Origin: Haemophilus influenzae
GTDB lineage: Bacteria; Pseudomonadota; Gammaproteobacteria; Enterobacterales; Pasteurellaceae
Reading direction: 5' to 3'
NCBI RefSeq assembly: GCF_900475755.1
Contig: NZ_LS483411.1
Span: 496,001-560,000 of the forward strand
DNA length: 64,000 nt
The notes under the pieces were generated by a model, which saw only the letters and a program-made list of their open reading frames with translations, had not been told where the DNA came from and ran no database searches. How positions within the stretch are numbered: the first letter of the stretch is position 1; each line of letters begins with the position of its first letter. Of the stretch, positions 1-51,134 are shown in pieces. Made by a program: the position numbers and the translations under genes.

Positions 1-171
1 AATTAGGTGTGTAAATTCTGCTTGAGGCAAATTTTACATAGGAAATTTTTCTATATTGCTTTAACGTTTTTTTATAGTAGAAGTATATACTCAGTTATGG
101 TTATGGTTACATAGTAAGCTTTTACTTTGTTCTAATTCACTTTAATAACCCTAAATAATTGAGGATTCCTT

Positions 172-1197
172 ATGAAAAGAAATTTATTAAAACAATCTGT
201 AATCGCTGTGTTAGTAGGTGGTGCATTACCAGTTTTGGCTTCTGCTAGTAATAGTGCTACTGTAGCAACTCAGTCACAGTCAGATACAGAATTAGATAAT
301 GAGATGATTTCTATCTTAGAGGATATTTCTAATATAAACGATGATCTTGATGGACTTACAAATAAAGTAGCTAGTCATTCTAGAACATTAGGTCGTCATA
401 CAAATAGACTCAATAATCTTAAAGATCTTGTAGAACGTTTGACAAATAGGGTAAATGGAGCTGCTAATGCACTTAGTTTACTTTCTCAAAATATTGGTTT
501 AAATAAAACTAACATCGAGAAAAAAGCAGACAAAACAGAAGTCTCTCTTTTGAAAAATAGGGTAGATGGAGCTGCTGGGGCACTTAATTTACTTTCTCAA
601 AATATTGGTTTAAATAAAACTAACATAGAGAAAAAAGCAGACAAAACAGAAGTCTCTCTTTTGAAAAATAGGGTAGATGGAGCTGCTGGGGCACTTAATT
701 TACTTTCTCAAAATATTGGTTTAAATAAAACCAACATAGAGAAAAAAGCAGACAAAACAGATGTAGATGCAAACAAAGCTGACATTGCAACTAACAAAGC
801 TGACATTGCAACTAACAAAGCTGACATTGCAACTAACAAAGCTGACATTGCAACTAACAAAGCTAACATTGCAACTAACAAAACTAACGTTGCAACTAAT
901 ACAGTTGTAATCGCAACTCACACTCAACGTCTTGATAATTTAGATAACAGAGTAAATAACCTTAATAAAGATCTTAAACGTGGTCTTGCTTCTCAAGCTG
1001 CATTAAATGGTTTATTCCAACCGTATAACGTAGGTAAATTAAATCTTACTGCTGCTGTAGGTGGTTATAAATCTCAAACTGCGGTTGCTGTAGGTACTGG
1101 TTATCGTTATAACGAAAATATCGCGGCTAAATCAGGTGTTGCTTTCACTCGTGGTGGCAGCGCAACTTATAATGTTGGCGTAAATTTTGAATGGTAA
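172..1197 (+). CDS. trimeric autotransporter adhesin, HadA/Cha type
   Basis: A 341-residue surface adhesin. Residues 1-25 form a signal peptide (basic start, hydrophobic core, small residues before SNSA). Residues 26 to about 265 are almost entirely predicted coiled-coil stalk, with no globular head recognisable. The last 75 or so residues form the YadA-type trimeric membrane anchor (LNGLFQPYNVGKLNLTAAVG onward, ending VNFEW). The stalk contains three 37-residue tandem copies (residues 90-126, 127-163, 164-200), then about seven heptads of the NKADIAT type (201-249). The N-terminus and anchor resemble what I recall of HadA of H. influenzae biogroup aegyptius and Cha of the cryptic genospecies, both adhesins of this class. 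It is much shorter than Hia/Hsf. A clear Shine-Dalgarno (GAGGA) precedes the ATG. Its target on host cells cannot be told from sequence. Confidence 0.88.
   Translation: MKRNLLKQSVIAVLVGGALPVLASASNSATVATQSQSDTELDNEMISILEDISNINDDLDGLTNKVASHSRTLGRHTNRLNNLKDLVERLTNRVNGAANALSLLSQNIGLNKTNIEKKADKTEVSLLKNRVDGAAGALNLLSQNIGLNKTNIEKKADKTEVSLLKNRVDGAAGALNLLSQNIGLNKTNIEKKADKTDVDANKADIATNKADIATNKADIATNKADIATNKANIATNKTNVATNTVVIATHTQRLDNLDNRVNNLNKDLKRGLASQAALNGLFQPYNVGKLNLTAAVGGYKSQTAVAVGTGYRYNENIAAKSGVAFTRGGSATYNVGVNFEW
439..771 (+). repeat. three 111-bp in-frame tandem repeats in the adhesin
   Basis: Units start at 439, 550 and 661 with an exact 111-base period (37 codons). Units two and three are almost identical over their shared length. 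Unit one differs more (NGAANALSL against DGAAGALNL). Because the unit is a multiple of three, gain or loss changes stalk length without breaking the frame. Confidence 0.93.
772..918 (+). repeat. 21-bp tandem repeats encoding coiled-coil heptads
   Basis: Seven consecutive 21-base units encode seven-residue repeats (consensus NKADIAT). The first four are identical at the protein level and nearly so in DNA. The last three drift (NKANIAT, NKTNVAT, NTVVIAT). Seven residues is the coiled-coil period, so each unit adds two helical turns to the stalk. Confidence 0.93.
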
Positions 1198-1227: not shown

Positions 1228-1268
1228 AAATACCTGTTTTTGAGTAATATCAGAAACAGGTATTTTTT
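1228..1268 (+). terminator. rho-independent terminator of the adhesin gene
   Basis: A 12-base perfect stem (AAATACCTGTTT paired with AAACAGGTATTT, 1228-1239 and 1254-1265) is followed by a run of T, 30 bases after the adhesin stop. Confidence 0.85.
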
Positions 1269-1341: not shown

Positions 1342-1860
1342 CTATTTTATTAATTTTGTTAGCGGATAAAATAACTTTCTGTGTGTTCCTCCAAATTCTT
1401 TAAATTCAATAAACCCTAATCGTTCATAAAACGAGCTGGCATCATCATTTTTTGCTTCAACGACTAAAATTGTAGCAGCTACCGTAGCATTCTTAATCTT
1501 ATGAATGGCGTCTACAATTAGAAACTTTCCATACCCTTGCTTCTGGAAATTCGTATCAATGGCTAATCGCCCTATTAAAACAGCAGGAATATTAGGATAT
1601 GGTACACCTTTACTTATTCGTTCTTGTGGTATATCTGCAATTGGTATTGATAATGCCGATAAAGTGTAATAGCCAACAATCCTAGATTGTTGTTCATTTA
1701 TAAGCACAAAACACTTTGCAAGCCCTTTTTTTACATCTTGAGAAACGTACTTATGAAAGTAGTTTTCTAAAGGTTCAACTGAACAAGAAAATGAACTTCT
1801 CTCAATCTTTACATCTTCTAAGGGTAATACTCTTAAATATGCTAAATTTTCATTTATCAT
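1342..1860 (-). CDS. GNAT acetyltransferase toxin of a TacAT-type pair
   Basis: A 172-residue GNAT-fold acetyltransferase. The acetyl-CoA loop motif QKQGYG lies at residues 106-111 and a tyrosine in SFYERLGF (Tyr145) sits where TacT-like toxins have their catalytic tyrosine. Known members (TacT, AtaT, ItaT) acetylate the amino group of charged tRNAs and block translation; that activity is inferred here. I chose the ATG at 1860, not the upstream in-frame one at 1908, because it gives the usual family N-terminus, has AGGA before it, and overlaps the antitoxin gene's last 11 bases. That overlap predicts translational coupling with the antitoxin made first. Confidence 0.85.
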   Translation of the reverse strand: MINENLAYLRVLPLEDVKIERSSFSCSVEPLENYFHKYVSQDVKKGLAKCFVLINEQQSRIVGYYTLSALSIPIADIPQERISKGVPYPNIPAVLIGRLAIDTNFQKQGYGKFLIVDAIHKIKNATVAATILVVEAKNDDASSFYERLGFIEFKEFGGTHRKLFYPLTKLIK

Positions 1861-2149
1861 TATTTTTTCCTGTAATAGATAGATATGCTTCATACATATT
1901 AAGCGCATTTTTCATTGATTGATTAGGCTCAAATGGTTTACTTAGACTTTCAATCAGCAATGCTTGATCATTCACTGCTAAACGTAAAACTTGATGTTCT
2001 GAAATGGTCTTTTTGGCTTCCTCGTAAGCTACACTTACCACAAAGTCGGTTAATGTTCGCCCTGTAATTGCAGCCGCTTGTTTTAGTAATTCATATATAT
2101 CTATGTTTACTTTAGCCTCCAATCTAGCTTTTGTTACTTGTGTTTTCAT
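1850..2149 (-). CDS. DUF1778 antitoxin of the TacAT-type pair
   Basis: A 99-residue protein. Its N-terminal half fits the DUF1778 ribbon-helix-helix fold (a short strand near KARLEAKVNID, then helices through LLKQAAAITGRTLTDFVVSV). Its C-terminal half is the expected toxin-binding tail. Family members bind DNA as dimers, neutralise the GNAT toxin and repress their own promoter. The start at 2149 has a strong AAGGAGT six bases upstream. The gene precedes and overlaps the toxin, the standard order for this class. Confidence 0.85.
   Translation of the reverse strand: MKTQVTKARLEAKVNIDIYELLKQAAAITGRTLTDFVVSVAYEEAKKTISEHQVLRLAVNDQALLIESLSKPFEPNQSMKNALNMYEAYLSITGKNNDK

Positions 2150-49895: not shown

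Positions 49896-51134
<1,239 letters not shown>

What the first reader, a model, noticed from the sequence alone, without database searches (positions are those of the whole stretch)
172..1197. Short trimeric adhesin built from two nested repeat systems
The stalk combines three 111-bp units and seven 21-bp units, both multiples of three. Copies two and three of the long unit are nearly identical, so the array expanded recently. For the related Cha adhesin, repeat number is known to tune adhesion; here the long unit is 37 residues, not the 28 I recall for Cha, so this may be a distinct allele class of the HadA/Cha family. No head domain is visible: binding would have to come from the stalk or the short N-terminus.
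Basis: partly seen in the sequence, partly recalled or inferred. Interest (0 to 1): 0.7.

Follow-up and report, generated by a model that had tools for sequence, protein, structure and literature searches.

The report
Headless trimeric adhesin with jointed stalk
This Haemophilus gene makes a short three-stranded surface fibre whose repeated stalk pieces look as if they can be added or lost without breaking its coil; it is one more member of a known adhesin family, and the odd length of its repeat can be explained.

Summary
In detail: 172-1197 encodes a 341-residue YadA-type trimeric autotransporter (TAA) with three 111-bp units (430-762), then a run of 21-bp heptad units, end to end rather than nested. 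The 37-residue unit equals four heptads plus a nine-residue nonad, IEKKADKT[E/D], which matches the beta-layer motif IENKADKAD of OMP100 (PDB 5APP). With nonads 31 of 32 core 'a' positions are hydrophobic, with pure heptads 12 of 32. In an AlphaFold monomer the stalk helix breaks only inside the KAD of the three nonads. Gaining or losing a unit should therefore keep frame and register.

The unit is not new: it is verbatim in 5 of 148 fetched relatives, and 37-residue copy-number differences occur in two other sequence groups. The gene follows srmB. Of 10 genus genomes, two others (H. haemolyticus) carry there a TAA with similar ends but a NadA-like head; one keeps a relic; six show no anchor within 1.5 kb. 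So this looks like a headless, HadA-like passenger at an exchangeable slot.

Adhesion, allele variation at this locus and identity with HadA are untested.

The parts
172..249 (+). Sec signal peptide (about residues 1-26; cleavage point inferred)
   Evidence: Hydrophobic N-terminus shared with relatives; cleavage site judged by eye, not predicted by a tool
250..429 (+). Short N-terminal segment and N-terminal coiled coil (residues 27-86) with the neck motif GRHTNRLNNLK; no head domain
   Evidence: Heptad register from residue 52; AF2 helix from residue 31; motif GRHT[NT]RLNNLK in 11 of 148 fetched relatives, 0 of those 11 with the NadA-like head pattern
430..540 (+). 37-residue unit 1 (four heptads + nonad), diverged edge copy
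541..651 (+). 37-residue unit 2
   Evidence: 2 of 111 bases differ from unit 3
652..762 (+). 37-residue unit 3
514..540 (+). Nonad 1 IEKKADKTE (predicted beta-layer at KAD, residues 118-120)
   Evidence: OMP100 motif IENKADKAD, 5app match, AF2 helix break at 119-120, coordinates checked
625..651 (+). Nonad 2 IEKKADKTE
   Evidence: AF2 helix break at 156-157
736..762 (+). Nonad 3 IEKKADKTD
   Evidence: AF2 helix break at 193-194
763..909 (+). Seven heptads with Asn at position d (VDANKAD, IATNKAD x3, IATNKAN, IATNKTN, VATNTVV)
   Evidence: helix unbroken 195-281 in AF2
910..1014 (+). Conserved C-terminal coiled coil leading into the anchor
   Evidence: Invariant columns from H250 in the alignment of 28 proteins; YadA anchor structure 2lme matched from residue 253
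1015..1197 (+). YadA-type beta-barrel membrane anchor (PF03895) and stop codon
   Evidence: PF03895 residues 282-341, E 3e-16
1228..1265 (+). Terminator-like hairpin: 16-pair stem followed by a T run
   Evidence: -20.1 kcal/mol, z -6.15; the consensus scan, which allows loops of 3-8 and its own stem rule, listed none
3..171 (+). Region between srmB (which ends at window 2) and the adhesin, similar to the same region in the two H. haemolyticus slots
   Evidence: SrmB named by NCBIfam NF008394

Best explanation
A trimeric autotransporter adhesin of the YadA/NadA type without a head. Exported by Sec, its C-terminal segments form a trimeric barrel in the outer membrane and the rest stands out as a three-stranded coiled coil. 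The stalk is built from heptads, some with Asn in the core, and three nonads, each expected to make a beta-layer in which the three chains cross. Each 111-bp unit encodes four heptads plus one nonad and each 21-bp unit one heptad. Recombination or slippage between copies would lengthen or shorten the stalk in fixed steps while keeping reading frame and register: a length adjustment rather than an on/off switch. Ligand contact would come from the coiled-coil tip or the stalk surface. The gene occupies a slot behind srmB where related strains carry headed versions with similar ends, so the passenger is exchangeable. Shown by sequence: anchor, repeat phases, nonad motifs, slot, copy-number differences among relatives. 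Predicted by model: helix breaks at the nonads. Inferred: Sec export, trimer assembly, beta-layers, adhesion, length adjustment at this locus, exchange.
For: PF03895 E 3e-16; PDB sequence matches 2lme 1.5e-26 and 5app 0.00056, the latter aligned so that NKTNIEKKADKTDVDANKADIATN meets NKKAIENKADKADVEKNRADIAAN. PMC4786415 passages: IENKADKAD is a two-residue insertion making a nonad among N@d heptads, its central KAD forming the beta-layer. Register from residue 52: 31 of 32 a positions are I/L/V/M/F with nonads, 12 of 32 with pure heptads; 6 of 20,000 random placements of three two-residue insertions did as well. AF2: helices 31-118, 121-155, 158-192, 195-281. Near kin: five pairs at 93% identity or more, single gaps of 14, 63, 28, 28 and 56 residues, all multiples of 7. 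37-residue gaps in 21 listed pairs from two sequence groups. Slot: TAA anchor after srmB in 3 of 10 genus genomes, relic in 1, no anchor found within 1.5 kb in 6; NadA-type head in the M19501 slot protein, near-identical in M19187.
Against: No relative at 93% identity or more to the window's protein was among those fetched, so repeat-number change of this very allele is not observed; the database listing was cut at 120 of 1,544. Only 14 of 32 d positions are I/L/V/M/F; 10 are Asn. In the wider set of 1,187 pairs only 90 of 1,835 gaps were multiples of 7, and some sizes (29, 2, 5, 11 residues) fit neither heptads nor nonads. The AF2 model is a monomer with mean pLDDT 69.9 and pTM 0.29, pLDDT falls to 61-77 around the breaks, and the anchor is below 50; Foldseek found nothing at E <= 0.001. 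There are no expression or adhesion data here.
Confidence: 0.7

Rival explanations
1. The stalk is only a spacer or a remnant: the gene lost its head and is not an effective adhesin; the repeats drift neutrally.
For: No head, while the same slot in two H. haemolyticus strains has a NadA-like head; G007 keeps only the start of such a gene; the window lacks 22 bp of the upstream region, including the TATAAT found in both H. haemolyticus strains, and the promoter scan found no more sites than in shuffles.
Against: The frame is open, signal-like N-terminus and anchor are intact, and a terminator-like hairpin is present. Eleven of 148 fetched proteins share the neck motif without the NadA-like head pattern, so the headless form is a lasting type.
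Confidence: 0.2
2. Variation mainly serves antigenic change (different surface epitopes), not length or adhesion adjustment.
For: N-terminal regions and stalks differ strongly between relatives while anchors are nearly invariant; the closest N-terminus over its full length is P0008, 47% over 99% of residues 20-123.
Against: Units 2 and 3 are nearly identical, so adding copies creates few new epitopes; replacing the passenger would do that better.
Confidence: 0.25
3. The 37-residue period is another sum (for example 15+15+7 or 11+11+15 residues) with continuous helix, not heptads plus a nonad.
For: YadA uses 15-residue repeats (PMC3309571, section 12); 37 can be summed in these ways.
Against: Heptad phase runs on both sides, with 31 of 32 a positions hydrophobic only if two residues are inserted at each KAD; the motif is near-identical to the solved nonad; AF2 breaks helices there. 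The other sums were not scored.
Confidence: 0.07

Closest known systems
OMP100 of Actinobacillus (Aggregatibacter) actinomycetemcomitans, PDB 5APP (alpha/beta coiled coils, PMC4786415, passages)
   Same: N@d heptads around a KAD nonad (IENKADKAD against IEKKADKTE); sequence match E 0.00056
   Different: The solved construct has one nonad; here the nonad is part of a unit present three times in tandem
Unnamed Haemophilus YadA-like proteins P0001, P0002, P0005, P0008, P0009 (sources name P0002 and P0005 as H. influenzae)
   Same: Same signal peptide, neck motif, 37-residue unit, Asn heptads and anchor; exact unit in P0001, P0002, P0005, P0009 and P0148
   Different: One full 37-residue unit (with nonad) each, against three here; different N-termini and heptad counts
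HadA / TabA-TahA family of H. influenzae biogroup aegyptius (PMC3309571, section 12)
   Same: Short TAA gene without simple sequence repeats; HadA G+C 35% in Table 2, here 34.3%; the HadA paper's title calls it an atypical coiled-coil adhesin (reference seen)
   Different: HadA is 256 aa and found only in the Brazilian purpuric fever strain of the two compared; its sequence and locus were not available
Cha of Haemophilus cryptic genospecies
   Same: In-frame tandem stalk repeats whose number differs; 28 residues would be four heptads (inference)
   Different: Repeat is 28, not 37 residues; Cha sequence not available
NadA of Neisseria meningitidis
   Same: Coiled-coil TAA; stalk and C-terminal coil match 6tik_C ('putative adhesin/invasin'; that this is NadA is recalled), E 1.5e-12; the M19501 slot protein matches 6eup, 6eun and 4cjd NADA from its residue 39-46 on
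   Different: The window protein shows no match to the NadA head

Membership tests
YadA-type trimeric autotransporter (type Vc) | C-terminal YadA anchor domain | tested here: met
   PF03895, 59.7 bits against cut-off 22.7, profile 1-60 of 60
YadA-type trimeric autotransporter (type Vc) | Coiled-coil passenger | tested here: met
   Heptad register, AF2 helices
YadA-type trimeric autotransporter (type Vc) | Signal peptide | tested here: inconclusive
   Judged by eye and by conservation; no predictor was run
YadA-type trimeric autotransporter (type Vc) | Trimer at the cell surface | not testable with these tools
   Only a monomer prediction was possible
Alpha/beta coiled coil with nonads (OMP100 type) | Two-residue insertion in a heptad with KAD core | tested here: met
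   Three sites, residues 115-123, 152-160, 189-197
Alpha/beta coiled coil with nonads (OMP100 type) | Beta-layer: chains leave the helix at KAD and cross in the trimer | tested here: inconclusive
   Helix breaks at 119-120, 156-157, 193-194 in an AF2 monomer; no trimer
HadA | Sequence similarity to HIBPF19140 and same locus | not tested
   Sequence not available; paper not held
HadA | Length 256 aa | tested here: not met
   341 aa here, 256 aa in PMC3309571 Table 2; length alone can vary with repeats
Cha | 28-residue tandem repeats | tested here: not met
   Unit is 37 residues; Cha 28 residues per PMC3498257 passage
NadA | NadA head domain | tested here: not met
   No match of the window protein to 6eup or 6eun at E <= 0.1, and 4cjd only at its residues 141-200; the M19501 slot protein matches all three

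The most novel reading that the evidence does not exclude
In this Haemophilus family the stalk is a set of interchangeable, register-safe modules made of heptads and beta-layer nonads (7, 9, 16, 28, 37 residues). Tandem duplication copies whole structural modules, so bacteria adjust fibre length, and the number of chain-crossing clamps along it, without disturbing the fold; meanwhile the srmB-linked locus exchanges headed for headless passengers. The variable repeat would then be a structural module, not just a DNA period.
Probability: 0.45. Interest if true: 0.55.

Novelty: new member of a known kind. Interest (0 to 1): 0.4.

Why it matters
It explains a puzzling 37-residue period as 28+9 and ties tandem-repeat variation in bacterial adhesins to a solved structural element, giving a simple test for which repeat sizes an adhesin stalk can tolerate. 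It also points to one chromosomal slot where headed, headless and lost adhesins can be compared directly.

Tried and rejected
General rule that all gaps are multiples of 7, or sums of 7 and 9: not upheld across the wider set (90 of 1,835 gaps are multiples of 7; 183 gaps of 29 residues), so it is claimed only for the near kin and as a description of named units. Phase variation by simple sequence repeats: the upstream region has only TTATGG twice (95-106), with TTATGC three times in M19501 and M19187. Promoter scan: 5 sites, 6.5 expected in shuffles. Foldseek against PDB: 20 matches at E <= 10, none at E <= 0.001. NCBIfam YadA, EmaA and BimA models matched far below cut-off. The search for related loci in genome contigs returned three loci, two H. 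haemolyticus and one Selenomonadales record with a 1,575-residue frame. The species of the window genome was not settled: srmB and yegQ/trhP DNA are 93-95% and 90-96% identical to the nine other genus genomes. The name hadA is also used for unrelated-by-name H. sputorum genes in PMC12979206 (passages). PMC7247748 and PMC4820727 gave nothing on HadA's structure.

Literature: searches for nonads with Haemophilus or coiled coil and for srmB with trimeric autotransporter and Haemophilus (0 papers) listed no description of this slot, or of nonads in Haemophilus stalk repeats, beyond PMC4786415; the library lacks most subscription papers, so this is weak evidence of novelty. H. influenzae type f KR494 is reported to have seven YadA-like TAAs of 213-629 aa of unknown function (PMC3928620, passages), so proteins of this kind are already in print.

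Full report
What is there. The ORF at 172-1197 encodes 341 residues: a signal-like N-terminus, a long coiled coil and a YadA anchor (PF03895, residues 282-341, E 3e-16; 2lme YadA anchor, E 1.5e-26). Tandem Repeats Finder gives a 111-bp array (438-761, 2.9 copies) followed by a 21-bp array (772-899, 6.1 copies). In structural phase the long units are 430-540, 541-651 and 652-762. Units 2 and 3 differ at 2 of 111 bases, units 1 and 2 at 12.

Why 37 residues. Walking the heptads, the unit reads VSLLKNR VDGAAGA LNLLSQN IGLNKTN IEKKADKTE: four heptads and nine residues. The nine-residue piece matches IENKADKAD of OMP100, described in the passages of PMC4786415 that I read as a heptad with a two-residue insertion. 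There the central KAD leaves the helix and the three chains cross in a triangular beta-layer, and it sits among heptads with Asn at position d, as here. The PDB sequence search aligns the window's protein to that construct (5app, E 0.00056). With nonads at residues 115, 152 and 189, 31 of 32 'a' positions from residue 52 to 275 are I, L, V, M or F; with pure heptads 12 of 32; 6 of 20,000 random placements of three two-residue insertions did as well. The d positions are less clean: 14 of 32 are I, L, V, M or F and 10 are Asn. AlphaFold2 on an alignment of 28 sequences gives helices 31-118, 121-155, 158-192 and 195-281, so the only breaks in the stalk fall inside the KAD of the three nonads. The model is a monomer, mean pLDDT 69.9, pTM 0.29, anchor unreliable; Foldseek found nothing at E <= 0.001. 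The beta-layers are therefore predicted, not shown.

Relatives. Of 1,544 proteins with E <= 0.001 the best 120 were listed; with a second search from P0008 (120 of 1,309 listed) and one with residues 20-123 (18 of 18), 148 relatives were in hand. None is close over its whole length: P0001 68% and P0002 69% over 99% of the query; higher values cover less than half of it. The database is clustered at 90% identity and may leave out the window's own record. The unit (36 of its 37 residues) is verbatim in 5 of 148 (P0001, P0002, P0005, P0009, P0148). By a pattern on 147 relatives plus the window protein, the window alone has three full 37-residue units; four proteins have two, twelve have one and 131 none; the pattern misses diverged forms such as that of P0042. 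Other relatives show 9-residue and 16-residue (heptad plus nonad) tandem units (P0010, P0042) and a 28-residue unit without a nonad (P0023, P0025, P0028). The neck motif GRHT[NT]RLNNLK is in 11 of 148; none of the 11 has the NadA-like head pattern, which 32 of 148 have.

Copy-number differences. Among eleven near-kin names that I asked to see (the window, P0001, P0002, P0004, P0005, P0008, P0009, P0023, P0025, P0028, P0032), five pairs reach 93% identity. Each differs by a single gap: 14, 63, 28, 28 and 56 residues, all multiples of seven. None of the five involves the window. A 37-residue gap appears in 21 listed pairs (those with at most three gaps) from two sequence groups: P0006/P0007 against P0015/P0016, and P0042, P0048, P0050-P0052, P0054, P0056 against members of P0142-P0147. 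These are pairs, not independent events. Against a general rule: in all 1,187 pairs, 90 of 1,835 gaps are multiples of seven, and 29-residue gaps (183) fit neither heptads nor nonads.

The locus. Upstream lies srmB (NCBIfam SrmB, 737.5 bits against cut-off 507), ending at window position 2. Downstream, on the other strand, are a GNAT/TacA1-type toxin-antitoxin pair and trhP (NCBIfam; called yegQ in my notes, from recall). Their slots share with the window the stretch from the end of srmB through the signal peptide (81% over 314 and 337 bp) and the C-terminal third with the hairpin (92-93% over 439 and 453 bp). Between these only a 92-bp heptad stretch matched, in M19501 (75%). The M19501 protein matches NadA structures from its residue 39-46 on (6eup 3.1e-08, 6eun 3.1e-08, 4cjd 0.00066; that 6eup and 6eun are NadA is recalled). 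The M19187 protein is 81% identical to it, nearly identical in the head part. G007 keeps part of the upstream region (window 92-187, 84%), the start codon and four further codons; the rest of the gene and its hairpin are missing. In the other 6 of 10 (G002, G004, G005, G006, G008, G009) no anchor was found there at E <= 1e-5; some of them have TAAs elsewhere. The 16-kb region has 11 copies of the uptake sequence AAGTGCGGT, 0.08 expected, none inside the adhesin gene; exchange by transformation is plausible, an inference.

How it most likely works. It is a short trimeric fibre without a head, anchored by its barrel. Repeat units add whole structural modules, so length could change without losing expression or fold. 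Stalk-borne binding has a precedent in BadA, whose fibronectin binding depends mainly on stalk motifs (PMC9602544, start of abstract and passages). For Cha, expansion of repeats lowered binding (PMC7142374, passage). Whether this protein binds anything, and what, is untested.

Known or new. It is a new member of the Haemophilus YadA-like trimeric autotransporters. PMC3309571 describes a ten-member family in biogroup aegyptius including HadA (256 aa, no simple repeats; section 12 read), and PMC3928620 seven YadA-like TAAs of unknown function in a type f strain (passages). The HadA and Cha papers were not held, so identity with HadA remains open. The added value here is the explanation of the 37-residue period, copy-number differences of such units in relatives, and the srmB slot with headed, headless and lost versions.

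Noticed in passing
window 1342-2149, minus strand: Toxin-antitoxin pair beside the adhesin: GNAT acetyltransferase (PF13673, E 7.2e-10) and TacA1-like antitoxin (PF08681, E 6.6e-26); frames of the same size also follow srmB in G007.
   Followed up: partly
window 51021-51106: A 39-bp repeat (2.2 copies) in the 3' end of the obg GTPase gene (49923-51134, TIGR02729) gives two acidic blocks DDDEDWDDDWTEE at the C-terminus.
   Followed up: no
window 74-112: Upstream of the adhesin the window lacks 22 bp, including a TATAAT, that both H. haemolyticus strains have, and carries TTATGG twice where they have TTATGC three times.
   Followed up: partly
L055 2808-2903 (genome G007): Relic of the same adhesin gene behind srmB: part of the upstream region and the first codons kept, the rest lost.
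   Followed up: partly
G000: L001, L003, L004, L005/L062, L006: Five further YadA-anchor loci in the same genome: one open frame of 2403 aa (Hsf-sized, name recalled) and four with open frames of 417, 187, 426 and 121 aa, some of which look truncated or interrupted.
   Followed up: partly
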